This document shows positions 27,172-39,739 of a DNA stretch of 64,000 bases, piece by piece (within the stretch, counting starts at the first letter, position 1; the number at the start of each line of letters is the position of its first letter). Source of the stretch: Brasilonema sennae CENA114. Lineage in GTDB: Bacteria > Cyanobacteriota > Cyanobacteriia > Cyanobacteriales > Nostocaceae. The DNA lies in contig NZ_CP030118.1 of NCBI RefSeq assembly GCF_006968745.1, forward strand, positions 1,810,654 to 1,874,653, read 5' to 3'. The position numbers and the translations under genes are program-made. A model generated the notes under the pieces. It saw only the letters and a program-made list of their open reading frames with translations, was not told the origin of the DNA and ran no database searches.

Positions 27172-29319
27172 TCAACCCTTCACACAAAGGACTTGCTTGA
27201 GTGTTGCTACAACCTCAACCAAATCCGCTTGATTATTCATCACCTCATCTATCGGCTTATAAGCGCTGGGAATTTCATCCAAAACGCCTGTATCTTTACG
27301 ACACTCTACACCTTTTGTTTGCTCAATCAAATCATCAAGCGTGTAGGTATTTTTTGCTTTATTTCTTGATAGCAAACGTCCGGCACCGTGGGAACAACTG
27401 CAAAAACTGTTGGCAGAACCCTTACCCTTAACGATGTAAGATTTAGTCCCCATCGAACCGGGGATAATGCCATAGTCTTCTTCTGTTGCACGAACTGCAC
27501 CTTTGCGAGTCACATAGACATCCTCGCCAAAATGCACTTCTTTTTCAGCGTAGTTGTGATGACAGTTCACTTCTAATAAAGGCTTCGTCGCTTTACCACC
27601 CGCTAGATGCTTTTCGACGATGCGCTTGAAACGCCCCATCATCACCTCACGGTTGAAACGCGCATAATTCTGTGCCCACTGCAAATCATGCCAGTATGCT
27701 TGGAATTCTGGCGTACCAGCGACAAAATGAGCTAAATCGGGATCAGGTAATTTATTACCCGCCATTTTTGCTAATTCTTTAGCTGTATTAATGTGGCACT
27801 GGGCTAGATTATTTCCGATGTTGCGGGAACCGGAATGTAACATCAGCCAAACTTGGTTCTCTGTATCGAGGCAAACTTCTATGAAGTGATTACCCCCTCC
27901 CAAAGAACCCATTTGTTTCATCGCTTTACCTTGCAAATTTTGAACACCTTGATGCAAGTCTTGGAAATCACGCCAGCGTTGCCAATTGGTGACACTTTTT
28001 TCAACGTCTTTATTTTCGTTGAAACCTGTAGGAATTTCTGCTTCAAGATCCAAGCGAATTTTCTTTAGCTTGCCTTCCAGTTGATCACCGTTAAATGGTG
28101 TTTTAATAGCACACATTCCGCAGTTATGAACGAAGACACCAGCTTCCAAGGCAAAATTATGATACTCCGGTACTGTTAGGCAATAAACATCCTCTGTATA
28201 GTCTAAAGGCAGTACAGCTACAACTTTGTGATTGCACTGGTGTTCTTTTTTTCGGTGGTTATGAAGTCCAATTGGTGTTTTGACTTCTGCATCACAGATG
28301 TCACAGGTGTAGAATCTATTTGCAATTTCCTTGGATTTTGCTCTGCCTTTTTCACTTTGATTGTAAGCGACCAAGTGTTGTTTTCCACGTTCACCATTGC
28401 CAGCAACCGCTTGTCTAAAGTGTTCTGGTTGTTGCTGCATATATTGAAGAATATTTTGAGTTCCTCGGGCTGCGTAGTACTCATACCCTTCTGGAGTTTG
28501 AGCTTTTCTGGCAAGTGCAGTTACTCGCTTTTGTTCAAATTCTGGAGATTGCCAATGTTGGTTACGTTCAACTAAGTTACGGTGATAAGCAGAATGGTCA
28601 TTATTACCCATAAACTCCAAGTTTTCTGGTCGATTGTCAGATTCATTGAAGTTGCGATGATGAATAACAGTTCTTTGCTCTTCAAATTTGGGAACCTTGC
28701 CTAATAAGCCTGATCTGGCAACAATCCAGTGTGCTTTTTGCCACCTACCTGAATAAGGTTGAGCGATTAAGGTATAGCCATCTTTGTCAACTTTAGAGTA
28801 GAACGGCATGAGGGATATCCCAGATTGAAGATTTTGAGCTTCCTTATACGTTCCATCCCGCAGCATGAATTGGTGATCAGGGGTGCAAATAATCTCTTCA
28901 CCGTTATCCAGAATCACTTTTATCACAGAAGCATTACGTCTAGTCAACTTAGCAGTTGCCTTAGCTGCTACGACTTTTCCGGTAGAGGTGCAAGCATAAA
29001 CAATAAACTCTTCGTTGCAATCAGCTAAGTTTTTAATTGGATATGATTTACCATCAAGCAAAGGAATCAGAGTATCGCCCACAAAGCAACCGATATCCAC
29101 GCCGACTGCAGCAGGAATAATTGCTTCTTTTGTCGCAATGACAGAACCAACTAAGGCACCTTTACCCAAATGGACATCTGGCATTAAAGCTACATGTTTA
29201 AAAACAAATGGTAGTGATGCTACATTCTTTGCCATCTTGGTTTCTTCTGAAGCCAAAGGGTGATTTGCCCAAGAGAGAATGGGTGATGGTGTTGAAAGTT
29301 TTAACTCTTCGTAAGCCAT
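27172..29319 (-). CDS. rtcB: RNA-splicing ligase RtcB interrupted by an intein
   Basis: A 715-residue precursor. After removal of a 322-residue intein the mature enzyme would be 393 residues, normal for RtcB, which joins 2',3'-cyclic phosphate or 3'-phosphate RNA ends to 5'-OH ends using GTP and Mn. Extein motifs include LMPDVHLGKGALVGSV, the broken active-site segment GVDIGC/CGMCAIKT, GGGNHFIEV, LHSGSRNIGN, VNCHHNYAEKE and the guanylylated His region SCSHGAGRLLSR. The intein sits exactly in the metal-binding Cys motif. The gene stands alone; no rtcA or RtcR-type regulator is next to it. A MITE abuts its 3' end. Confidence 0.95.
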   Translation of the reverse strand: MAYEELKLSTPSPILSWANHPLASEETKMAKNVASLPFVFKHVALMPDVHLGKGALVGSVIATKEAIIPAAVGVDIGCFVGDTLIPLLDGKSYPIKNLADCNEEFIVYACTSTGKVVAAKATAKLTRRNASVIKVILDNGEEIICTPDHQFMLRDGTYKEAQNLQSGISLMPFYSKVDKDGYTLIAQPYSGRWQKAHWIVARSGLLGKVPKFEEQRTVIHHRNFNESDNRPENLEFMGNNDHSAYHRNLVERNQHWQSPEFEQKRVTALARKAQTPEGYEYYAARGTQNILQYMQQQPEHFRQAVAGNGERGKQHLVAYNQSEKGRAKSKEIANRFYTCDICDAEVKTPIGLHNHRKKEHQCNHKVVAVLPLDYTEDVYCLTVPEYHNFALEAGVFVHNCGMCAIKTPFNGDQLEGKLKKIRLDLEAEIPTGFNENKDVEKSVTNWQRWRDFQDLHQGVQNLQGKAMKQMGSLGGGNHFIEVCLDTENQVWLMLHSGSRNIGNNLAQCHINTAKELAKMAGNKLPDPDLAHFVAGTPEFQAYWHDLQWAQNYARFNREVMMGRFKRIVEKHLAGGKATKPLLEVNCHHNYAEKEVHFGEDVYVTRKGAVRATEEDYGIIPGSMGTKSYIVKGKGSANSFCSCSHGAGRLLSRNKAKNTYTLDDLIEQTKGVECRKDTGVLDEIPSAYKPIDEVMNNQADLVEVVATLKQVLCVKG
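28123..29088 (-). other. Intein with HNH homing endonuclease inside RtcB
   Basis: Residues 78-399 of the RtcB precursor. The first residue is Cys (CFVGDTLIPLLDGK, block A), block B is CTPDHQFMLRDGTYKEAQNL, and the end is EDVYCLTVPEYHNFALEAG then VFVHN, with Cys as the +1 extein residue. All splicing residues (Cys1, block-B His, terminal His-Asn, Cys+1) are present, so it should splice. The middle holds an HNH-type endonuclease: VIHHRNFNESDNRPENLEF with a following HSAYH. A Zn-finger-like CDICDAEVKTPIGLHNHRKK lies near residue 340, probably for DNA binding. Confidence 0.9.
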
Positions 29320-29441
29320 AATTATTTAGAATTTTCAATTTAAAATTTCGGATTCTAGGGGCAGTTTCACTGCAATTTTAATTTTGCACAGTATTTCATT
29401 TTATTTCCTACTTACAAATAGACATGTGTTAGTTAAATGGA

Positions 29442-29476
29442 TAATGCCCACCACAACCAGATAACGATGGGCATTA
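29442..29476. other. Hairpin in the rtcB/methyltransferase divergent gap
   Basis: TAATGCCCA and TGGGCATTA form a perfect 9-bp inverted repeat with a 17-base loop, midway between the starts of two divergent genes (312-bp gap). It could be an operator or a structured leader. The rest of the gap is A+T-rich. Confidence 0.4.
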
Positions 29477-29631
29477 CCTAAGTGCCACTCCCAGCAAGTA
29501 GCTGGCTTTGTATTATTTATATAATACATTATGTATTAACTAGATAACGAGTACTTCTTGTAAAAAATATATTAAAATTTGTAAATAAAATGACAATAAA
29601 TTAAAAAAACCGACAGCTTAAACACAATCTT

Positions 29632-30549
29632 ATGACAGTTCGTCAAGATACAATTTGGGAACGTTTTCTATCCCCTGTAGTACGTTTGCTCATTGATGAG
29701 GAAGGGTTACGGCGTTACTTTGAAAGCGTTGATTGGGAAAAAGAAAGCAGCCGCTTTCGACGCGCTGATGTCACAGTTCCGCCATACTACAGCAGCCAAA
29801 ATTTTCATGGAATTAAGGATGGATATCTCAAGCCAGGTGCGGCGGTGAGCTACGATCCTATTACCCAATATGTTCTCCCGCCTACTGAAACTATAGTGCG
29901 TCAGGCAATAATCGATTCGATCAAAGTACAGCCGCGACGTATTCTTGACTTGGGCTGTGGAACAGGTTCCACAACTTTGATGTTAAAGCAGGCTTTCCCT
30001 CAGGCAGAAGTCATCGGCTTGGATTTATCGCCTTATATGTTGGTGCGTGCTTCTCACAAAGCTGAAAAAACTGGTTTAGACATAAATTGGCGACATGGGG
30101 ACGCACAGAAGACGGGTTTTCCTGATGCTTCTTTCGACTTGGTTACAGCTTCTTTGTTATTCCACGAAACGCCAACAACAGTAGCTGTGGCAATTTTACA
30201 AGAGTGTTTCCGCTTGCTGGTAACTGGTGGACAAGTGCTGATTTTGGATGGAAATCAAAACACTTTGCGTCAATTAGATTGGTTGAATAATGTGTTTGAA
30301 GAGCCGTATATTCGTGAATATGCTGCTGGGAGTGTGGATGCGTGGATGGGGGAAGCAGGATTTCAAGCAGTGCAAACCCAGGATGTATGGTGGATAAATC
30401 AAGTTACAAGTGGAGTGAAACCAATTTTATCTGAAGATGGTACTGTACGAACAGATGTAGGACGTTACACTTCTGTACAAAGAGACGACACAGTGGATAA
30501 TGAAGATTTACAGGGTTTTCCATCTCCAGCTTTTGATACAATGCCATGA
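29632..30549 (+). CDS. Class I SAM-dependent methyltransferase
   Basis: A 305-residue protein. The SAM-binding motif ILDLGCGTGSTTL is near residue 104, followed by VIGLDLSPYMLVRA (motif II), HGDAQKTGFPDASFDLVTAS (motifs around the cofactor) and GGQVLILDGNQN. The N-terminal ~95 residues and C-terminal tail carry no other domain that I recognise. The pattern resembles UbiE/Coq5-like small-molecule methyltransferases. Its stop overlaps the next gene's start (ATGA), so the two are translationally coupled. Confidence 0.85.
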   Translation: MTVRQDTIWERFLSPVVRLLIDEEGLRRYFESVDWEKESSRFRRADVTVPPYYSSQNFHGIKDGYLKPGAAVSYDPITQYVLPPTETIVRQAIIDSIKVQPRRILDLGCGTGSTTLMLKQAFPQAEVIGLDLSPYMLVRASHKAEKTGLDINWRHGDAQKTGFPDASFDLVTASLLFHETPTTVAVAILQECFRLLVTGGQVLILDGNQNTLRQLDWLNNVFEEPYIREYAAGSVDAWMGEAGFQAVQTQDVWWINQVTSGVKPILSEDGTVRTDVGRYTSVQRDDTVDNEDLQGFPSPAFDTMP

Positions 30550-31271
30550 GTTTAAAGGCAGTTTTATTTGATTTTAATGGTGTCATCATTAATGATGAGT
30601 CAATCCACGAGCAACTGACAGAGCAAATTCTACTTGAGGAGAACCTCATTCTTAAGCCACGTGAGTATCGGAAAGTTTGCTTAGGACGTAACGATCGCAG
30701 TTGTTTAAAAGATTTGCTTGCTAATCGTGGTCGTGTGCTAAGTGATACTGAATTAACTAAGTTGTTCAATTCTAAAGCAAAAGGGTATGCTTTGGAACTG
30801 GAAAAAATAGAAGAGCTGCCTTTGTATCCTGGTTTAAATGACTTCATATCTCAAGTGTCTTCTCGCAATCTCAAACTCGGGATAGTCAGTGGTGCTATCC
30901 GCAAAGAAATAGAACTGGTACTTGAGCGTGCTAAACTAGCTCAATATTTCAAAGTTATTGTCGTAGGTGATGACGTTACCACCACTAAACCAGAACCTGA
31001 TGGTTATTTGTTGGCTGTGGAACGCCTGAACCAGGAATATCCTGCTTTGAATCTTCAACCACAAGAGTGTTTAGCGATAGAAGATACTCCTGCTGGTATC
31101 CAAGCTGCAAAACGAGCAGGTATGCAAGTGGTTGGTGTGGCGAATACTTACCCTTTCCATATGCTTCAGCGTTGCTGCAACTGGACGGTAGATGATCTGA
31201 CTGACTTGGAATTGGAACGGGTGCAGGAAGTTTATTCTCAAAAAGAATTGCAAAGTACTACAGGCGCATGA
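30546..31271 (+). CDS. HAD-superfamily hydrolase (beta-phosphoglucomutase-like)
   Basis: A 241-residue protein starting MSLKAVLFDFNGVI. Motif I reads DFNG, with Asn in place of the second Asp of DxD, a variation also seen in related cyanobacterial proteins. An alpha-helical cap follows (~residues 16-90). LGIVSGAIRKE carries motif II, TTKPEPDGYLLA has the motif III Lys, and CLAIEDTPAGIQAAKRAGM is motif IV. It is probably a sugar-phosphate phosphatase or phosphomutase. The 4-nt overlap with the methyltransferase gene suggests a common pathway. Confidence 0.85.
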   Translation: MSLKAVLFDFNGVIINDESIHEQLTEQILLEENLILKPREYRKVCLGRNDRSCLKDLLANRGRVLSDTELTKLFNSKAKGYALELEKIEELPLYPGLNDFISQVSSRNLKLGIVSGAIRKEIELVLERAKLAQYFKVIVVGDDVTTTKPEPDGYLLAVERLNQEYPALNLQPQECLAIEDTPAGIQAAKRAGMQVVGVANTYPFHMLQRCCNWTVDDLTDLELERVQEVYSQKELQSTTGA

Positions 31272-31311
31272 TAGGACAGAAAGTTTCTTGTTTGAGACGG
31301 GGAAAATTAGC

Positions 31312-32469
31312 TCAGCATTCTCCATTTGTCTTACTAATTTGCTTTGCCAACCAAAGCCGGAAGTGGGAATGGTAGAAGCTGTAACGGGTTTCTTTACCGA
31401 TGCGGTGCTGCTGTAGAAACTCAAGCCAATTTTCAAGAATTTCTTCTACATCATATTCATCTTCGGCTATTGCCTGACTAATCCCTTTTGCTGAAATTTC
31501 TCCAGTTTCCGCACAAGTGAGGACACTCAGCACTTTCAAAACCAAATCAGATAAACCCTCACTTTTCATTTTCTGCCAATGCTGCTGGTAATATGCCTCT
31601 AAACCTGGGGGAATGCAATCAAATTGGTAGGGTTGGGAGTCAAAATCCTCAGCGATCGCATTCAAAGTATGGTGCAGGTACATAAAATTATTTTCGCTTG
31701 CCGTGGTGAGGCGAGAAACGAATTTTGATCTGTTTTCCAACTCCTCCTCTGTGAGGGGAGATGAGGTCTCTTTATTAGGGAAGAGGTAATGGTTTGCTTG
31801 AATATACGCTTGCACATCTTCGCGGTTTTCTTCTGGATACTCCGATAAATCAAGTATTTGTGAAGGTGCTTCTATTAACAAACCAGATTTTTCTCTTTTG
31901 AAGGGACGGCGAGTGAGAAGAAAATAGACTCTATCCGGCAGATATCTGGGAAGATAAAACAGATTTGTACCTGGGGGTTGGCTGTTAGGGTCAATCGCGT
32001 CTAAGGCATCAATAGCGATTATCAGCCGTTGTGGTGGTTCTAGGCGATCGCTGATTTTTTGCAGCAGGAGTGAGAGAAACCAACTTCCCTGTGTGGCGTT
32101 GTCGGGTAAAACATCCACGTCTGTAGAGGATGAAGAATATTGTGCGCCTACGTCCGGGTAATGATGAATTAATTGAGTGCAGATGTTTCTGAGAAATTCC
32201 TCAGCCCTACTTTTACCGACGATTTGGGCATTGTAATAAATAACGTGGTAATTTTCCGTCACGTACTTGGCAACTATACCACTTTTACCGCTACCAGGAA
32301 CACCAACAATGGTGAAGTAACCGCGCTTGTGACGGTGGAGAAATTCGGTGATGGCGGTGAAGATAAATTCACGACCGATAAAATTTTGGCTTTTTTCGAG
32401 AATGATTTGTTGAAACTCGGTTGGGTAGGAGGTGGAATTGATGAGGGTTTGGGAAGGTGGGGTTTTCAT
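31312..32469 (-). CDS. STAND-like P-loop NTPase without HTH
   Basis: A 385-residue NTPase. NFIGREFIFTAITEFL opens the domain, Walker A GVPGSGKSG is at residues 56-64, and Walker B LIIAIDALDAID at ~149-160. YFLLTRRPFKRE fits the sensor position, where STAND/NACHT proteins have an Arg. ASENNFMYLHHTLNAI and a C-terminal YSFYHSHFRLWL match the NTPase encoded at 34870-36246 almost motif for motif, so the two are paralogues; this copy lacks the N-terminal HTH. It overlaps the WD40 gene by 4 nt (ATGA) and is the last gene of the operon. It probably works with the upstream proteins in a signalling or conflict complex. Confidence 0.8.
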   Translation of the reverse strand: MKTPPSQTLINSTSYPTEFQQIILEKSQNFIGREFIFTAITEFLHRHKRGYFTIVGVPGSGKSGIVAKYVTENYHVIYYNAQIVGKSRAEEFLRNICTQLIHHYPDVGAQYSSSSTDVDVLPDNATQGSWFLSLLLQKISDRLEPPQRLIIAIDALDAIDPNSQPPGTNLFYLPRYLPDRVYFLLTRRPFKREKSGLLIEAPSQILDLSEYPEENREDVQAYIQANHYLFPNKETSSPLTEEELENRSKFVSRLTTASENNFMYLHHTLNAIAEDFDSQPYQFDCIPPGLEAYYQQHWQKMKSEGLSDLVLKVLSVLTCAETGEISAKGISQAIAEDEYDVEEILENWLEFLQQHRIGKETRYSFYHSHFRLWLAKQISKTNGEC

Positions 32470-34877
32470 GGTTTCGCCTCAATGCCTTTTAGGCGGAGGA
32501 AATGCAAGCGTCCGGATTCTTCACCTGCTACGATTGTTACGCCATCAGATGCAACAGCGCAGCATTTGATTTCACTTTCTCCTGTGAAAGAGGCAATTAT
32601 TTCTCCAGATTCCAGATTCCAAACTTGGAGAGTTTTGTCAAGTGATGTAGAAACGACCTGTTTGCCACATGGTGTAACTGTTACAGTACTTATCGATTTA
32701 TTATGACCTCTAAAATTGAAAATTTCTTTTCTATTTTCCAAATCCCAAACTTTGATAGTTTTATCATCAGAACCAGAAATTATCCATTTATCATCAGGTG
32801 TGACAGCCAGAGTATTTACCGAAGCGCTATGACCAGTAAGAGTGAAACATTCCTTCTCAGTTTCTAGATTCCAAACTTTGAGAGTTTTGTCCTCCGAGGC
32901 AGAAACCAAGTACTTACCATTTAAGGTGATGGCTACAGCAGTTACCGACTCACTATGACCTCTAAGAGTAAAGATTTGTTTTTTATTTTTAATATTCCAA
33001 ATTTTTATACTTTTGTCTTTACAACCAGTAACTATTCTTTTTCCGTCTGTAGTTACTGTTAAAGATATTACTTCACTACTCTCTATGAAAAGTAGAATTA
33101 TTTTTCCTATTAAATATAAAAATAAACCTACCAAACTTAACGTAAAGTAATGATGGAATAGCATGTATAAAAAAATACTTAAAAAAGTTTCATCTATAAA
33201 TTTTAAGAAGACAAATAATTTTACTAAAATCAAGGAAAACACAACATCAAATCTTCTAAATAAGGTTTTCCTAAAAAGAGGTTTTTGTGATTGTGTTAGA
33301 TCGATAACGTTAAGGTTTTTGTCCTCAGAATAGGTAATTAAGCTATTTCCATCCGTGGTTAAGGTAATAGCTTTAATTGCACTATTTTTGGATAAAAGGT
33401 ATGACTGTTTTCCGTCTAAATTCCATAATTTGAGTGTACCGTCAAGTGAACCAGAAATTACGTTTTTACCATCTCTAGTCACAGTAACTGCATTCACCGA
33501 GTTATCATGATTCTTGAATGTAAACTTTTCTTCCCCAAACTGCAAATACCAGACCTTGAGTGTACCGTCAAATGAACCAGAAATCACGTATTTGCTATCA
33601 GTACTTACAGTGACTGCATTCACCGAGTAACTATGACCATTAAGGGTAAACTTTTCTTTCCCAGACTGCAAATCCCAGACTTTGAGTGTTTTATCACTGG
33701 AAGCAGAAATTACGTATTTGTTATCACTAGTGACGGTGACTGCATTCACTGAGTAACTATGACTATTAAGGGTAAACTTTTCTTCCCCAGACTGCAAATC
33801 CCAGACTTTGAGTGTTTTGTCACTGGAAGCAGAAATCACGTATTTGTTATCACTAGTGATGGTGACTGCATTGACCGAGTCAAAATAACCACTGGTAGTG
33901 AACTTTTCTTCCCCAGACTCTAAATTCCAGACTTTGAGTATACCGAATCTGGAACCGTAACTGGAACCGAAAATCAAGTATTTGCCATCACTTGTGACGG
34001 CGACTGCTTTAACCGATAAATTCTGACTGCTGAGGGTAAATTTTTCTTTACCAGACTGCAAATCCCAGATCTTGAGTGTTTTGTCAGTGGAACCAGAAAT
34101 CACGTATTTGCCACGCAGTGTAACTGCAATGGCATTTACAGAGTCACTATGACCGCTAAGGGTAAATTTTTCTTTACCAGACTGCAAATCCCAGACTTTG
34201 AGTGTTTTGTCACTGGAAGCAGAAATCACGTATTGACAATCTGGTGTGACGGCGACTGCATCCACCGACCCTACATGACCACTCAAGGTAAACTTTTTTT
34301 TCCCAGACTGCAAATCCCAGACTTTGAGTGTTTTGTCACTGGAAGCAGAAATCACGTATTTGCAATCTGGTGTGACGGCGACTGCATTAACCGAGTGACT
34401 ATGACCGGTGAGGGTGCGAACTAACGCGCCACCAGGAGGAGTTAAGCTAGCTGTCAGGGGACGTAACCAAGTGATTTTGGTTTGCGATATTTGTTGCAGC
34501 AATCCTTGAATTTCTGGTGCATCAAAGTGCAGCAAACGCCCTGACAATTGCCCTCCTAGTTGCTTTGTATCTTCATTTAAAATATGTGCTGAGAGTCGCA
34601 ACGCCCCTTGAATTAATCTCAGCGCTTTAACAGTTTGGGCATCGTATTCTGAGTAAGTTAAGAATTCTGTATCATCAATCAAATCATAATCTTCAATCAG
34701 CGCCTGCACACCAAATTTAGGATGATTAATTTTTGCTTCTATAAAGTCAAAATCAGTCAGCAGACGGCAGAGTTTCTTAACTTGACCACCTTCTAACCAC
34801 AAACGTGGAACTTCACTCAAGAAAAGTTCTCTTTCTTCCGATGACTTCTCAGCTAACCAGGCGCGAAGATTACTCAT
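32466..34877 (-). CDS. WD40 protein with helical N-terminus and internal membrane segments
   Basis: An 803-residue protein. I use the ATG at 34877 (MSNLRAWLAEKS), preceded by AAGGA and overlapping the previous stop as ATGAGTAA. Residues 1-150 are helical and resemble the region that follows the NTPase in APAF1-like STAND proteins. Fourteen WD40 repeats follow, enough for two seven-bladed propellers, many ending KVWDLQSGKEKF. Between repeats 9 and 10 (~residues 540-600) sits a strongly hydrophobic stretch with FSLILVKLFVFLKFI and YFTLSLVGLFLYLIGKIILL, two or three membrane helices. Repeats 1-8 are very alike, suggesting recent duplication. The likely role is ligand sensing at the membrane for the partner NTPases. 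Confidence 0.85.
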   Translation of the reverse strand: MSNLRAWLAEKSSEERELFLSEVPRLWLEGGQVKKLCRLLTDFDFIEAKINHPKFGVQALIEDYDLIDDTEFLTYSEYDAQTVKALRLIQGALRLSAHILNEDTKQLGGQLSGRLLHFDAPEIQGLLQQISQTKITWLRPLTASLTPPGGALVRTLTGHSHSVNAVAVTPDCKYVISASSDKTLKVWDLQSGKKKFTLSGHVGSVDAVAVTPDCQYVISASSDKTLKVWDLQSGKEKFTLSGHSDSVNAIAVTLRGKYVISGSTDKTLKIWDLQSGKEKFTLSSQNLSVKAVAVTSDGKYLIFGSSYGSRFGILKVWNLESGEEKFTTSGYFDSVNAVTITSDNKYVISASSDKTLKVWDLQSGEEKFTLNSHSYSVNAVTVTSDNKYVISASSDKTLKVWDLQSGKEKFTLNGHSYSVNAVTVSTDSKYVISGSFDGTLKVWYLQFGEEKFTFKNHDNSVNAVTVTRDGKNVISGSLDGTLKLWNLDGKQSYLLSKNSAIKAITLTTDGNSLITYSEDKNLNVIDLTQSQKPLFRKTLFRRFDVVFSLILVKLFVFLKFIDETFLSIFLYMLFHHYFTLSLVGLFLYLIGKIILLFIESSEVISLTVTTDGKRIVTGCKDKSIKIWNIKNKKQIFTLRGHSESVTAVAITLNGKYLVSASEDKTLKVWNLETEKECFTLTGHSASVNTLAVTPDDKWIISGSDDKTIKVWDLENRKEIFNFRGHNKSISTVTVTPCGKQVVSTSLDKTLQVWNLESGEIIASFTGESEIKCCAVASDGVTIVAGEESGRLHFLRLKGIEAKP

Positions 34878-36246
34878 AGCCAAAAAGTCCTTCTGTCATA
34901 TTATCGGCAACTTCAGCGCTGATATCTGGTAAATTCACCCCCGCCGCTTGCACAATATCCTGACGATGCAAAAAATCTCGGAAACTTTCGTGATAAAACC
35001 TGTAGCGCGGTGGTTGATAATTTTCCTGTTTCTGCAAAAACTGCGCCCAGCGATCAAGAACTTCCTGCACAGTCAACTCATTCTGCTTAGAATATTTGGC
35101 AACCACTGCACGGGAAGCCGCGCTACGTAAAGCACACATCACATAAATAATCTTGATTTTATTTTTCGGTAAAGGCTTGGTTGTCATGCCCATGATTTCC
35201 CAGTGGCTGTAATAATATCCTTCTAAACCTACAGGTAATTCATCCAGAGGTTTATTTTCGTAAAAACCATTAGCCATTGCTGGTAATACACAGCGCAAAT
35301 ACATAAAATTATTTTCGCTTTTTGTGGCGACTTCTTCCACAAAGTCAGGATTAGAGAGATTTTGCTTTTGAATCCACTGACTCAAGCCCTGTTGATATTC
35401 TTTATCATTGAGCAATAGCCAAATATATTCTTTCACATCTTGGCTACTTCTATCGGCGTAGTCTCTTAAGTCCAATTCCTTAGTAGAAACGCTGGGTGAA
35501 ACATTCAACCTTTTCTCATTTTGGTTATACGGTCTTCTTGTCAGCAGAAAGTAAACCCTTTCTGGAAGAATAGTAGGTAAATATAAAAGATTTCCGGTCG
35601 ATTCTTGGTCAACTTCGTCGAGTGCATCAACAACAATTATCAGGCGTTCACCAACACCAATTCTTTCACTAGCTTTGATCAGCAAAGTTGATAAATCAGC
35701 ATCTGCTGCATCCTGCAATTGGTAACGACTCATCAATTGTTCGCGAATTTTTTTCAGGAACAATTCCGGGCGATTCATGCCCTCAGCGCGAATATTGAAA
35801 AAGCAAATCGCTGCTGGGTTGTCTAATACGTACTTGGCGGCGATCGCACTTTTCCCCATTCCTGCATCACCCACGACAGTAAAGTAGCCGTTGGGGTTTT
35901 TGCTGAAAAACTCTTCAATAGCATCAAAGACAAATTTTCTACCACTAAATGACTCTGTTTTATCTTTTATTAATCGTTCAAATTCTGGCGGTATTTGCTG
36001 CGGATTCCAATCTTTAGGATCAACGATATCAGTTGGTTTAATATCTAAAACTTTGGCTATACTTTCAACTTGCCTTCTTTCAACTCCATTCAGGTAGTCT
36101 TTTGTACCTAATAAACGTTTAATTGTGTCCTGAGAAACTTTTGCTTTTTCTGCAAGCTTCTCTATAGTCAAACCCGCTTCTTTGTAAGCATTTCTGAGTC
36201 TAATTTTGCCTTCTTCGCTAGATTGAACCTTATCCGATTGCAGCAT
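34870..36246 (-). CDS. HTH-containing STAND-like NTPase
   Basis: A 458-residue protein. Residues ~15-75 form an XRE/MerR-like HTH (AGLTIEKLAEKAKVSQDTIK, then VLDIKPTDIV). The NTPase domain begins FSGRKFVFDAIEEFF, with Walker A GDAGMGKSA at 126-134 and Walker B LIIVVDALDEVD at ~202-213. Sensor-like LLTRRPYNQNE follows, then SENNFMYLRCVLPAM and YRFYHESFRDFL. In many cyanobacteria HTH, NTPase and WD40 are one chain; here the WD40 part is the next gene, overlapping by 8 nt. The HTH may bind DNA, or serve as an adaptor as in other cyanobacterial STAND proteins. Confidence 0.85.
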   Translation of the reverse strand: MLQSDKVQSSEEGKIRLRNAYKEAGLTIEKLAEKAKVSQDTIKRLLGTKDYLNGVERRQVESIAKVLDIKPTDIVDPKDWNPQQIPPEFERLIKDKTESFSGRKFVFDAIEEFFSKNPNGYFTVVGDAGMGKSAIAAKYVLDNPAAICFFNIRAEGMNRPELFLKKIREQLMSRYQLQDAADADLSTLLIKASERIGVGERLIIVVDALDEVDQESTGNLLYLPTILPERVYFLLTRRPYNQNEKRLNVSPSVSTKELDLRDYADRSSQDVKEYIWLLLNDKEYQQGLSQWIQKQNLSNPDFVEEVATKSENNFMYLRCVLPAMANGFYENKPLDELPVGLEGYYYSHWEIMGMTTKPLPKNKIKIIYVMCALRSAASRAVVAKYSKQNELTVQEVLDRWAQFLQKQENYQPPRYRFYHESFRDFLHRQDIVQAAGVNLPDISAEVADNMTEGLFGYE

Positions 36247-36316
36247 AGATAAAAGAGATTGATGAATCCAGATATTTAATAATGTGATAGCTCAGATATT
36301 GCACCTGCTTTCTCGT

Positions 36317-36432
36317 CCGCCTATAAATGAATTTCTAGGCTCAAAGGTCAAGTAAGCTAAAGCTCACTGAATATATATTTCAGTCCGTTTTAACGGACTT
36401 TGGCTATGAGCCTTGAAATTTATTTCAAGGCG
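36317..36432. repeat. Multi-hairpin dispersed repeat, copy A
   Basis: A 116-bp element bounded by CCGCC and AAGGCG. It contains CTGAAATATA-type and AGTCCG-TTTTAA-CGGACT hairpins, a closing CTCA/TGAG pair, and CTTGAAATTTATTTCAAG near the right end. Copy B (39740-39856) has the same order and almost the same length. Both are preceded by the sequence TTCTCGT or TCTCGTCCGCCT. Confidence 0.6.
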
Positions 36433-36674
36433 TACTCACCAGTGAGATACAAGATCTAAGATAACTAATCTTTAATTTACCTGTGTAGGGCAGTTAGGTT
36501 TTATTCACTTGCCCCATCTGCCCCAAAACATAGGGCAAATCATAACTTTACACTCAACCTATCTGCTCTCGAATTTGAATTGTTGCCTCTACATAATACG
36601 AATATGCAAGTTTAAAAAACCTTGCGCTTACCACTCAATCAACACACAACACATACCACAAAAGGCAACAACTC

Positions 36675-36974
36675 ATGAACTTCAATATTTCTTCTAAACC
36701 ACAACCCAACAATAATGAAGCTGCACAAGAGATGAAAAAAAATATAATTGAAGAATTATTACGCCAAGCACGTCTCACCTTCAACCTTGCTTTAAGCGTA
36801 ACCGCAGCATCTGCGATGATGACATTATCTGGTGTAGGACTTCTCTATTTAAATAAAGTACCAGAAGCCAGCCTCACCACAGGGGCAGGAATTCTTGCCA
36901 GTATTAGCAGCGTTCAGTTTGCCAAAGATGCAAAACAAGAACTGTGCGAGATGGTAGACAAGTTAGAGGAATAA
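36675..36974 (+). CDS. Small 2-TM protein resembling the TRADD-N-associated membrane domain
   Basis: A 99-residue protein. A polar N-terminus leads to ELLRQARLTFNLALSVTAAS, then two hydrophobic helices (MMTLSGVGLLYL and LTTGAGILASISSVQFA), ending with an acidic amphipathic tail KQELCEMVDKLEE. This wording (RQARLTFNLAL, two TM helices, V-FAKDA) matches what I remember of the cyanobacterial TRADD-N-associated 2-TM domain described from multi-component NTPase conflict systems. It is usually fused to or encoded beside a TRADD-N or effector domain; here it is alone, divergent from the HTH-NTPase operon. It could form the membrane-disrupting or anchoring component. Confidence 0.6.
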   Translation: MNFNISSKPQPNNNEAAQEMKKNIIEELLRQARLTFNLALSVTAASAMMTLSGVGLLYLNKVPEASLTTGAGILASISSVQFAKDAKQELCEMVDKLEE

Positions 36975-37070
36975 TCTTAGAAGTTGAATGAGTTCTTTGA
37001 GGCGGTGATACCGCCCCGAAGCCACCAATACCGGACGAAAAACGTGGGGAAGAGTGGCTTCCCCATTCCT

Positions 37071-37943
37071 TTACCGCCTCTGTCTATCTTCTTGAGGGCT
37101 AGAAATGACATCTGGTAAAGGACGTTTGGCAATGTAAAGCCAAGCTAACCCAGCTAAACCGAAGATTATTCCCAATAAACTCACAACTTGTGCTATTCGT
37201 AAAGGCCCAAGCATCAAACTATCCGTCCGCAGACCTTCTATCCACAGGCGTCCTAAGCTGTAAGCTGCCAAGTAAACTAGAGACAGCGTACCTGTTTTCA
37301 AAGCTGGTTTACCTGACAAACTTCTAAAAAATAAAGTGATCAGCAAGGCGAAGACCATAAGATCCCACAAAGATTCATAAAGAAAAGTGGGATGGAAAAA
37401 CTCAAAATTAGCCAGTTCTGGGGGACGGTGTTCTGGTGGAATATGTAGCTTCCAAGGTACATTTGTCGGACTGCCAAATGCCTCAGAGTTGAAGAAATTG
37501 CCCCAACGTCCTATTGCTTGACCTAAAATCAGCGAAGGAGACACCAAGTCAGCCAATTGCCAGAAAGAAATCTGTTTTAATCTGGCGAATATTAATGCTG
37601 CGGTAACACCACCGATAATTGCTCCATGAATTGCTATGCCTCCCTGCCAAATAGCAATAATCCGTTCTGGGTGCTGGGCATATTCTGACCATTGAAACAA
37701 AACGTAATATATCCGTGCTGCTGGAATTGCCCCAATCACCAGCCAAATTGATAAATCGCTAATTAAATCTGGATTAACGTTACGGTGCTTAGCCAGTTTT
37801 TGGGAAAGCCAAACGCCAATCAATACTGCTGTCGCAATCAATAAGCCATACCAACGGATTGTTAATGGTCCTATTTTCACCAGAATTGGTCCTGGAGAAG
37901 AAAATTCAAATGCCAAGGGCAAGGTGGAAATATCCAGTGCCAT
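37071..37943 (-). CDS. lgt: Phosphatidylglycerol-prolipoprotein diacylglyceryl transferase
   Basis: A 290-residue polytopic membrane enzyme that transfers diacylglycerol to the lipobox Cys of prolipoproteins. Motifs include [44 protein letters not shown] (the catalytic His region) and the Lgt signature [13 protein letters not shown]. The C-terminal membrane segment has [14 protein letters not shown], another conserved Lgt motif. Length is typical. PhnD, encoded in this window, is a likely client. Confidence 0.95.
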
Positions 37944-37996
37944 GTAAAAGTACCTAGAAGACTAAAAAAAGGTAATGTAGATTTAAGTTGTGCTTG

Positions 37997-38227
37997 TTAA
38001 CAGCGCCCTACGGACAGCGATTGCAACCGGTTACGGATGAAAGAAACACTCTTAACAGGGAACACGGGAACGACAGTCAAAAATTGTTGCAAAAGCCAAA
38101 CTATTGATTTTAGATCGCTGTGAGTAGAAAAGGCAGTAGAGGTAGTGTATTTATCCAGAATTTTATTTTGAAAGTAGATAAATAAAACTATGGCAGTAAG
38201 TGTGCTAAAGCTTAAAAAGATTAACAT
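37997..38227 (-). CDS. Possible small membrane protein
   Basis: A 76-residue frame between lgt and coaD. Its N-terminus is one hydrophobic helix (MLIFLSFSTLTAIVLFIYF) and the remainder is basic. I see no ribosome-binding site and no family. It is plausible but weakly supported. Confidence 0.25.
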   Translation of the reverse strand: MLIFLSFSTLTAIVLFIYFQNKILDKYTTSTAFSTHSDLKSIVWLLQQFLTVVPVFPVKSVSFIRNRLQSLSVGRC

Positions 38228-38316
38228 ATTGAATTTCTAACTGAGAACTTGTACTTTGTTACAAATCACGATTGGTTAGATATAATCACCTAAACAACTG
38301 TGAGGCATCTGTGATC

Positions 38317-38811
38317 ATGATTGCCATTTATCCAGGAAGTTTCGATCCTGTTACCTTAGGACATCTTGACATTATCCAACGCGGCAGTCGTTTGTTTGCT
38401 CAAGTGATTGTCGCGGTATTGCGGAATCCAAACAAAACTCCGCTGTTTACAGTGGAAAGACGGCTAGAACAGATTCGTCTGTGTACAAAACATCTCACGA
38501 ATGTGGAGGTAGACGCTTTTGCTGGTTTGACTGTAAAGTATGCCCAAATGCATGGTGCACAAGTGCTATTGCGCGGTTTACGAGCAATTTCTGACTTTGA
38601 GGTAGAACTTCAGATGGCTCACACAAATAAAACCCTTTCTCATGATATAGAAACCGTTTTCTTAGCAACGTCAAATGAATATAGTTTTTTAAGTAGTAGT
38701 GTGGTGAAAGAGATTGCTAAGTTTGGTGGCTCTGTTGATCATCTTGTCCCCCCGCACGTTGCTTTAGATATTTACCAATGCTACGCCCAAAACCATCCCG
38801 TATCGAACTAA
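38317..38811 (+). CDS. coaD: Pantetheine-phosphate adenylyltransferase
   Basis: A 164-residue nucleotidyltransferase joining 4'-phosphopantetheine and ATP to give dephospho-CoA. The start [20 protein letters not shown] includes the HxGH-like TLGH motif. ALRNPN-type [26 protein letters not shown] and the second signature [14 protein letters not shown] follow. A GTG at 38311, five bases after GAGG, is an alternative start adding two residues. The next gene starts inside its 3' end (34-nt overlap). Confidence 0.95.
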
Positions 38812-39473
38812 ATCAAAACGGAAGCACTCCTCCTCCGCAAGAGTATCCTGCTGGAATATCGGATAATCCAGATGCTACACGAACAACAAGTGTAGATATA
38901 CAGATGGAACTCAACCGCTTGGAGGAGATGATTCTTGCTGGTTTCAACATTCCACTGACGCGACGCACGATAGTAGATGAAGACAAGCTGCTTGATCAGC
39001 TTGATGAAATACGGCTTTCTTTACCTGAAGTTTTTCAGGAAGCAGCAACAATTATCCAACAAAAGGAAGATATTCTCCTGGAAGCAGAAGAATATGGACA
39101 ACAAATTGTTGATGCAGCGCAAGCCAAGCGATCGCAAATCTTGGATGAAAGCGACATTATCATACAAGCAGAACGGGAAGCCGCTGAACTGCGGCGACAA
39201 GTTCAACAAGAATGTGAGCAGATGATGCAAGACACTCTTGAAGAAATTGACCGCAAACGACGCGCCTGTCAGCAAGAAATAGAGGAAATGCGGCATCAAG
39301 CTGTTGCAGAAGCAGAAGCAGTTGAACAAGGTGCTGATGACTACGCTGACGGTGTACTAGAAAATATTGAGCAGAATCTTCAGGATATGTTGCGAATCAT
39401 CCGTAACGGACGTCAACAACTACTACCAGAAGCTTCTAATGATGATAATTCTCAATTTCCTAAAAAAAAATAA
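38778..39473 (+). CDS. Coiled-coil protein (DivIVA/AtpF-like)
   Basis: A 231-residue cytoplasmic protein. Residues 1-35 are Pro/Asn-rich. From ~45 onward the chain is a long acidic coiled coil ([56 protein letters not shown]). Such proteins are annotated DivIVA-like or ATP-synthase-B-like by coiled-coil similarity, and their role in cyanobacteria is uncertain. Its ATG lies inside coaD, so translation is coupled. Later starts (38904) would remove only the disordered part. Confidence 0.75.
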
Positions 39474-39739
39474 TTCTAAATTATAGTTTCTTGATCTCTC
39501 AGCTTTCCACGGTTCAAAAGCCAACTATGCCATATTATCAGGATGAGCAGACTATGACTACCGACGACTAATATAAAGTTTATTTTTTACCATAAACAGA
39601 CACTTCTGTCAAAGCAAATTATGGAAGCTAGTAGGTTGGGGAGCCACCGCCGGGGAGGGGTTCCCCGGCTTGAGGCGAGTGGCGTTTGACGCTGCGGTTA
39701 CCTGAGATCTTGCACAATTCTCACACCTTGCATTCTCGT

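What the first reader, a model, noticed from the sequence alone, without database searches (positions are those of the whole stretch)
31312..36974. Four-gene STAND/WD40/2-TM locus: candidate undescribed signalling or conflict system
The sequence shows an HTH-NTPase, a membrane-inserted WD40 protein and a second NTPase in one overlapping operon. A divergent small 2-TM protein beside them resembles the cyanobacterial TRADD-N-associated membrane domain. From general knowledge, STAND NTPases and this 2-TM domain occur in immune-like multi-component systems of multicellular cyanobacteria. I infer that WD40 senses a ligand, the NTPases oligomerise, and the 2-TM protein or the HTH executes the response.
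Basis: partly seen in the sequence, partly recalled or inferred. Interest (0 to 1): 0.75.

Follow-up and report, generated by a model that had tools for sequence, protein, structure and literature searches.

The report
Promoter-firing NLR-like switch in cyanobacteria
A four-gene locus in a filamentous cyanobacterium looks like a bacterial cousin of immune receptors that, instead of carrying its own toxin, probably switches on a neighbouring gene for a small membrane protein through a dedicated DNA landing pad.

Summary
In detail: HTH-STAND NTPase (N1), WD40 protein, second NTPase (N2) and a divergent gene for a PF20712 '2TM' protein. The set is conserved well beyond the genus. The membrane insert in the WD40 protein is sporadic, and no TRADD-N domain is present.

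New: (1) N1 relatives swap N-terminal modules (two HTH types, NNH5, CHAT, HEPN); the divergent 2TM gene accompanies 49 of 58 HTH heads and 0 of 99 others (49 of 60 and 0 of 97 after a later correction). (2) The N1-2TM gap holds a multi-site array that matches the HTH type; array and HTH swap together in 5 of 5 independent pairs. (3) Some loci keep the array but have another gene in the 2TM slot. (4) 58 of 83 sampled PF20712 genes elsewhere are divergent from HTH-headed proteins. (5) WD40 repeats vary most where fungal non-self receptors do.

Best reading: a split NLR-like sensor working like MalT: ligand on WD40, N1/N2 activation, HTHs on the array, 2TM gene switched on. DNA binding is well supported; activation, membrane action and defence are inferred.

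The parts
34870..36246 (-). N1: HTH_26 head (about 36016-36201) plus STAND NTPase with winged-helix end; DNA-binding NTPase half of a split receptor
   Evidence: model mean pLDDT 83, best PDB match MalT 8bob_C 2.9e-7, then Apaf-1 3sfz 1.0e-6; Walker A/B-type motifs seen in the translation
32466..34883 (-). WD40 protein: N-terminal helical part (34434-34883), WD40 repeats; sensor half of the split receptor
   Evidence: its first 150 residues match part of an 883-aa NB-ARC plus WD40 single chain in the same genome (52%, 3.5e-18; NB-ARC 6e-32)
33078..33263 (-). hydrophobic insert between WD40 repeats (about residues 541-602); sporadic
31312..32469 (-). N2: second STAND-type NTPase, no head domain
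   Evidence: present after N1 in 100 of 125 loci with at least 6 kb downstream
36675..36974 (+). PF20712 '2TM' protein, divergent; presumed output
36487..36498 (+). array site 1, AGGGCAGATAGG with 1 mismatch
36513..36524 (-). array site 2, 2 mismatches
36532..36543 (+). array site 3, degenerate (4 mismatches; counted only because its position is conserved)
36558..36569 (-). array site 4, 1 mismatch
36590..36597 (+). TACATAAT, -10-like element of the 2TM gene, in the place of TAGGATA in relatives; start site not mapped

Best explanation
The locus is a split, NLR-like STAND switch with a transcriptional output. N1 (NTPase) and the WD40 protein are two halves of what is elsewhere one NTPase-WD40 chain (shown by homology); N2 is a partner NTPase. 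At rest the NTPases are presumably closed and ADP-bound (inferred from STAND proteins in general). When the fast-evolving WD40 part binds its ligand, N1, with N2, opens and oligomerises (inferred). The HTH heads then bind together to the four-site array at 36487-36569 (array shown; binding inferred from the joint swapping of HTH type and array type) and switch on the divergent 2TM gene (activation inferred from the position of the array; repression not excluded). The 2TM protein is the effector, probably at the membrane (inferred). Sister systems with the same core carry a fused head such as NNH5, CHAT or HEPN and lack array and 2TM gene, so HTH plus array plus target gene is one exchangeable output cassette. 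The likely role is defence or another non-self response (inferred).
For: Conservation: WD40 follows N1 in 125 of 125 and N2 in 100 of 125 loci with at least 6 kb downstream. HTH and 2TM gene go together: 49 of 58 HTH heads, 0 of 99 other heads; on a tree of 157 NTPase domains, in 9 independent pairs on starred branches the 2TM gene goes with the HTH in 6.3 on average, against it in 0, no difference in 2.7 (median sign-test p 0.031). Array: two or more AGGGCAGATAGG sites in 32 of 36 HTH26 loci and 0 of the 136 scored loci of other classes; TATACnT chains of three or more in 12 of 15 wHTH loci and 1 of 157 others. HTH type and array type change together in 5 of 5 independent pairs (p 0.0625, the minimum for five; 42 of 49 rows scored). 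Array kept beside other target genes in L237, L239, L241, L244, L267, L283. Geometry: last site ends 22-23 bp before a TAGGATA-like element in 16 of 36 HTH26 loci and 20 bp before a variant in 3, the window included. N1 fold nearest MalT, a STAND activator that acts on promoters with four sites (PMC10427625, passages). Sensor: repeats 63% identical to the nearest relative where N1 is 93%; variation peaks at positions selected in fungal HNWD receptors.
Against: No binding, expression or toxicity data. Nine of 58 HTH loci lack the 2TM gene, and two more HTH_3-headed proteins filed under 'other' (L254, L276) lack both array and 2TM gene. L088 and L193 have an HTH head with neither. The second head type (wHTH) is called HTH on weak grounds: 5 of 10 scanned members match any Pfam HTH model at E up to 0.1 (0.05 for one of them) and none passes a curated cut-off. 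17 of 36 HTH26 loci lack the -10-like element at 18-23 bp or were not resolved with my pattern (L082 is at 18). L091 shows TATAC repeats by eye but scored a chain of only 2 and so was left out of the pair test. The window is not in a recognisable defence island: its neighbours are lgt, coaD, rtcB and other ordinary genes (by sequence), and no PADLOC model names the system.
Confidence: 0.68

Rival explanations
1. Repressor version: resting N1 sits on the array and silences the 2TM gene (and perhaps its own operon), as in a toxin-antitoxin pair; activation releases N1 and the 2TM protein is made.
For: Divergent HTH/small-membrane-protein pairs are a common layout of autoregulated toxin-antitoxin loci (general knowledge). 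The same array-HTH coupling fits equally.
Against: The array lies wholly upstream of the -10-like element, its last site centred near -40 if that element is the -10, as for class II activators (inference); the nearest fold is an activator.
Confidence: 0.2
2. Direct-contact version: the 2TM protein is the membrane partner of the N1/N2/WD40 complex and the HTH only tunes expression; the response is an assembly at the membrane.
For: Tight co-occurrence of N1 and 2TM would also follow from protein contact; 2TM and N1 evolve at a similar pace (93.9 and 92.6% to L075).
Against: PF20712 genes sit divergent to HTH heads on quite different bodies: TRADD-N plus pentapeptides, NACHT plus NCH2, NB-ARC plus TPR, AAA_35, so the shared element is the HTH and not one NTPase surface; other genes take the 2TM slot with the array kept.
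Confidence: 0.1
3. Ordinary regulation: a signal-responsive regulator of a harmless membrane or stress protein, with no role in conflict.
For: MalT itself, the nearest fold, is a metabolic regulator; some target slots hold an HATPase_c_2 protein (9e-20), which suggests signalling; no infection data.
Against: Sister systems carry CHAT and HEPN_Swt1 heads; WD40 repeats vary at recognition positions; patchy presence and a decayed copy in Brasilonema G011; a plasmid copy beside an integrase gene.
Confidence: 0.3

Closest known systems
MalT (E. coli STAND transcription activator)
   Same: STAND NTPase that controls transcription; best fold match of N1 (8bob_C, 2.9e-7, TM-score 0.41); acts cooperatively on promoters, one of them with four sites (PMC10427625, passages).
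   Different: MalT is one chain with a C-terminal HTH and TPR-type sensor (recalled); here the HTH is N-terminal, the sensor is a separate WD40 protein, there is a second NTPase, and the target is a divergent PF20712 gene.
Bacterial TRADD-N systems (Kaur et al. 2021, PMC8195603; passages and section 9 seen)
   Same: Occur in multicellular bacteria; some combine HTH heads, STAND NTPases and repeats; an HTH head is read there as pointing to a transcriptional response. PF20712 is named after them.
   Different: No TRADD-N domain in this locus. The section describes an ECF-like HTH; PF20712, its divergent layout and the operator arrays are not mentioned in the passages and section that I saw, and '2TM' does not occur in the text.
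Avs / bNACHT antiviral STAND proteins
   Same: Effector-STAND-sensor plan (PMC10907252, passages); weak PADLOC Avs1b match of N1 (2.1e-7, 26.7 bits).
   Different: Single large chains with fused effectors; NCBIfam Avs1b cut-off far from met (16.2 against 1500 bits).
Podospora HNWD non-self receptors
   Same: NTPase-WD40 receptors with homogenised repeats that vary at positions 7, 9, 25 and 27 (PMC2873952, passages; here ranks 3, 6, 1, 4 of 33).
   Different: Fungal, single chain, cell-death head; no operator or divergent target gene.

Membership tests
STAND NTPase | P-loop NTPase core with Walker A/B motifs and STAND-type fold | tested here: met
   N1 and N2 match AAA_16/NPHP3_N; motifs seen in the translations; N1 fold matches MalT and Apaf-1
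STAND NTPase | nucleotide-dependent oligomerisation | not testable with these tools
   needs purified proteins
MalT-like STAND transcription activator | DNA-binding domain joined to a STAND core | tested here: met
   HTH_26 1.5e-6 on N1, head well modelled as helices
MalT-like STAND transcription activator | multi-site operator at the target promoter | tested here: met
   (sequence only, no binding data)
MalT-like STAND transcription activator | MalT domain order, C-terminal HTH and TPR sensor in one chain | tested here: not met
   N-terminal HTH, separate WD40 protein; so it works like MalT but is not a MalT
PF20712 CyanoTRADDas_TM | score over the curated cut-off | tested here: met
   62.3 bits against 24.3
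PF20712 CyanoTRADDas_TM | two membrane helices | tested here: inconclusive
   hydrophobic means 1.58 and 1.15; two-helix model at pLDDT 58
TRADD-N system | TRADD-N domain in the locus | tested here: not met
   no PF20694 match in the four proteins at E up to 0.1
Known anti-phage system (PADLOC, Avs) | system models or curated cut-offs met | tested here: not met
   only partial matches such as STAND_TPR 8.7e-9 and Avs1b 2.1e-7 on N1, a repeat-driven match of the WD40 protein (HEAT-ARM_XIII 3.5e-50), none on 2TM
Known anti-phage system (PADLOC, Avs) | protects against phage | not testable with these tools
   needs infection assays

The most novel reading that the evidence does not exclude
Cyanobacteria have a general class of NLR-like and TRADD-N-type sensors whose effector is not fused to the sensor but written next to it in the DNA: an HTH head, a matching multi-site array and a divergently transcribed effector gene (usually PF20712) form one cassette that is exchanged as a unit with fused effector heads, HTH type and array type changing together. 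PF20712 would be the standard effector of promoter-firing immune receptors.
Probability: 0.5. Interest if true: 0.85.

Novelty: new variant of a known kind. Interest (0 to 1): 0.74.

Why it matters
Bacterial NLR-like receptors are mostly read as sensor plus fused toxin. Here one receptor core repeatedly trades a fused head for a DNA-binding head, a matching operator array and a separate target gene: an immune-like receptor that would fire a promoter. It gives PF20712, known from its name only as TRADD-N-associated, a testable role, and it supplies natural experiments (closely related loci that differ in HTH and array) for the joint evolution of receptor and operator.

Tried and rejected
Rejected or weakened: (1) One broken gene instead of N1 plus WD40: a separate WD40 gene follows N1 in 125 of 125 loci with room, so the split is real. 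(2) The WD40 insert as membrane anchor of the system: not conserved. (3) TRADD-N as the tie to PF20712 in this locus: no such domain. (4) RNA element: no Rfam match at gathering score in 29300-39500. (5) Phage copy of the 2TM gene: no match at E up to 0.01 in the phage collection. (6) Wide regulon: a strict paired-site pattern occurs once in the genome, here; a looser pattern found one other place on both strands but missed this locus, so this says little. (7) A generic repeat test on 57 intergenic regions of the other PF20712 loci: 8 of 57 beat all 10 shuffles; I claim no array there. (8) Structure search with the 2TM model was not run because the model is poor. (9) Ten literature searches listed no paper that I recognised as describing this module; PF20712, CyanoTRADDas and 'TRADD-N associated' gave 0 papers. 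The library holds open-licence papers only.

Limits of the counts: N1 loci come from searches with the window's own N1 (192 genomes of one family, listed rows to about 1e-64 of a capped list) and the best 80 of 262 confirmed loci in the genome collection, itself capped; 174 distinct ORFs resulted. Ten with cut N-termini were dropped from the HTH/2TM count (one fragment, in L240, does have a 2TM gene) and 7 NNH5 rows lay too near a contig end. L246 has two N1 genes and one 2TM gene, counted for both. After the count, L254 and L276 of the class 'other' proved to match HTH_3; moving them gives 49 of 60 and 0 of 97. Fisher's p of 7e-32 ignores relatedness and is not used. The tree is a quick one without bootstraps. 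The array motifs were read off loci and some later ones; in rows not looked at before scoring, 9 of 9 HTH26 loci and 2 of 3 wHTH loci carry their array.
Full report
1. What is there. The window lies in a Brasilonema-like genome: the nearest named loci are Brasilonema (93, 90 and 89% identity to N1). Pfam gives N1 an HTH_26 head and a P-loop NTPase, N2 a P-loop NTPase, the middle protein 11 WD40 stretches, and the small protein PF20712 well above its cut-off. The three minus-strand genes overlap. The gap between N1 and the 2TM gene is 428 bp; about 36288-36466 of it is a dispersed repeat found at 37 other places in the genome (my count of the rows, whose search scored only part of its candidates).

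2. The receptor is split. The first 150 residues of the WD40 protein occur at four places in the genome: here, in two paralogous N1-WD40 operons, and in an 883-aa open frame at C1:5346228, where the match to residues 31-150 (52%, 3.5e-18) lies between an NB-ARC domain (6e-32) and WD40 repeats in one chain. So the WD40 protein is the sensor half and N1 the NTPase half of an NLR-like receptor. N2 is a second NTPase without a head.

3. The module is conserved. N1-like matches are in 123 of 192 sampled genomes of the family at E up to 0.001 and PF20712 in 110 of 192. In fetched loci with at least 6 kb downstream, WD40 follows N1 in 125 of 125 and N2 in 100 of 125; by class N2 is in 21/25 HTH26, 5/6 HTH26b, 10/11 wHTH, 61/68 NNH5, 3/14 other, 0/1 CHAT. 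Among named genomes the HTH plus 2TM form occurs also in Symploca, Moorena, Okeania and Microcoleus.

4. The output end is modular. The 174 distinct N1 ORFs have these heads: Cro-like HTH (HTH26) 36, a diverged Cro-like group (HTH26b) 7, a second type that I call wHTH 15, NNH5 87, CHAT 1, other 18, cut 10. 'Other' holds HEPN_Swt1 (1.5e-22) and a weak transglutaminase-like match (0.0027) among the members scanned. The wHTH head is called HTH on its pattern: 5 of 10 scanned members match a Pfam HTH model (best 0.00029), none over its cut-off. A divergent 2TM gene within 2.5 kb accompanies 30 of 36 HTH26, 7 of 7 HTH26b, 12 of 15 wHTH, and 0 of 99 non-HTH rows with room. On a quick maximum-likelihood tree of 157 NTPase domains the head needs at least 25 changes, HTH against non-HTH 15: repeated swapping, not one old event. 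In 9 independent pairs on starred branches the 2TM gene goes with the HTH in 6.3 on average and never against it.

5. An array that matches the HTH. In HTH26 loci the gap holds sites of the type AGGGCAGATAGG in the order +, -, +, - at start-to-start distances of 26 (or 25), 19 and 26 (or 25), the third often degenerate. The last site ends 22-23 bp before a TAGGATA-like element in 16 of 36 loci and 20 bp before a variant in three, the window included; in the rest the pattern was absent or elsewhere. In wHTH loci the gap holds TATACnT repeats at steps of about 11 bp. Two or more A-type sites: 32/36 HTH26, 0/15 wHTH, 0/7 HTH26b, 0/86 NNH5, 0/18 other, 0/1 CHAT, 0/9 cut; shuffled sequences average about 0.04 sites. 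TATAC chains of three or more: 12/15 wHTH, 1/86 NNH5, 0 elsewhere. HTH26b loci have a related but different array by eye, not scored. L090 lies in the window's own clade of nine N1 proteins (support 100) and L091 beside L082 (support 95), yet both have the wHTH head; L090 has the TATAC array by score (chain 4), L091 by eye only (chain 2). In the five independent wHTH/HTH26 pairs with a scored array, the array goes with the head in five (p 0.0625, the lowest possible with five; 7 of 49 rows without a scored array were left out). This is the strongest evidence that the head binds the array.

6. The target slot is exchangeable too. Of the nine HTH loci without 2TM, L237, L239 and L244 have the array beside a different small one-helix protein family (mutual phmmer E 3e-12 to 6e-7), L241 beside a 169-aa protein, and L267 and L283 the TATAC array beside a 208-aa protein that begins with the MNFxLFGNS leader of some 2TM proteins and goes on (in L267, the one scanned) to an HATPase_c_2 domain (9e-20). 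L263 has one scored site and another gene; L088 and L193 show neither array nor 2TM gene. A Chroococcidiopsis plasmid carries HTH-N1, WD40 and N2 beside an integrase gene, with a different divergent gene and two weak sites.

7. PF20712 beyond this locus. I looked at 99 loci chosen in the E-value order (not at random) or fetched earlier. My profile found the ORF in 93; in six the domain seems to sit in a longer frame and they were left out. Of 83 distinct ORFs, 58 have a divergent gene within 700 bp whose protein starts with a Cro-like HTH (median gap 146 bp). Two more partners have other HTH types (L357, a short wHTH frame that is probably a broken N1; L370, GerE-like). 11 have no divergent ORF of 100 aa, and the rest have other genes. 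Bodies behind the HTH heads include TRADD-like_N plus pentapeptides, NACHT plus NCH2, NB-ARC plus TPR, and AAA_35. As a rough baseline, 435 other ORFs in loci L075-L134 gave 10 such heads, all of them partners of PF20712 genes. So the HTH, not TRADD-N, is the commoner partner of PF20712.

8. The WD40 part behaves like a recognition surface. Against L075 the identities are N1 92.6, N2 88.4, 2TM 93.9, WD40 head 84.0, WD40 remainder 63.3%. In 434 repeats of 53 WD40 proteins (of 156 rows; those with at least five repeats that fit my pattern), variation within proteins is highest at positions 25, 6, 7, 27, 2 and 9. The four positions under positive selection in Podospora HNWD receptors (7, 9, 25, 27; PMC2873952) rank 3, 6, 1 and 4, and a fraction of 0.0002 of all four-position sets vary as much. 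Cautions: surface positions may vary in many WD40 proteins, no housekeeping control was run, and the window's own nine repeats are invariant at position 7 and less alike among themselves (60%) than those of its relatives.

9. Structure. The N1 model (mean pLDDT 83) matches MalT first (8bob_C, 2.9e-7, TM-score 0.41), then Apaf-1 (0.34); by sequence the nearest solved chains are an HTH match (8vd6), Apaf-1 and SinR. The 2TM model is two helices at low confidence.

10. Turnover. In Brasilonema G011 the flanking genes are there, and the 1.0 kb between them holds only an N2 piece (82%) and a 107-bp WD40 piece (94%): the locus has decayed. G111 and G143 showed no row for the N1-2TM part, but their flanks are on separate contigs or incomplete, so absence is not certain.

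11. Verdict. Shown: the gene set, its conservation, the head swaps, the arrays and their match to head type. Well supported: N1 binds the array. Inferred: activation rather than repression, 2TM as membrane effector, defence as the role. It works like MalT with an NLR-WD40 sensor; it is not a MalT, not a TRADD-N system and not a catalogued defence system. Papers: PMC8195603 (passages and section 9), PMC7159879, PMC10907252, PMC2873952 and PMC10427625 (passages); every other paper only in search listings.

Noticed in passing
36288-36466: About 170-bp imperfect-palindrome repeat inside the N1-2TM gap, with 37 other places in the genome by my count (matches on both strands); possibly a MITE-like element. 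L076 and L077 share it by eye, L075 and L078 have other inserts there.
   Followed up: partly
27172-29319 (-): RtcB gene whose 715-aa translation looks interrupted by an intein; relatives L076 and L096 have an uninterrupted 393-aa RtcB-like frame.
   Followed up: no
36580-36587 and 36664-36671: TTGTTGCC and its inverse GGCAACAA flank the presumed 2TM promoter; seen also in L075, L076 and, with small changes, L078. Not tested.
   Followed up: no
L267:6005-6631 and L283:5798-6424: Target gene that keeps the 2TM leader MNFKLFGNS but continues as an HATPase_c_2 protein (Pfam scanned for L267), followed by a response-regulator-like gene: a chimera at the operator.
   Followed up: partly
L113:3778-6058 (own genome C1:2352854): Second PF20712 gene of the genome, divergent from an HTH-headed TRADD-like_N plus pentapeptide protein: the likely origin of the family's name.
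   Followed up: partly
L111 and L112 (own genome C1:2974024 and C1:4590648): Two paralogous N1-WD40 operons with NNH5 heads and no 2TM gene (N2 found only in L112), in the same genome as the HTH version.
   Followed up: partly
L246:5004-8356: Two N1 genes in tandem, one wHTH-headed and one HTH26-headed, with one divergent 2TM gene; only the TATAC array is scored there.
   Followed up: no
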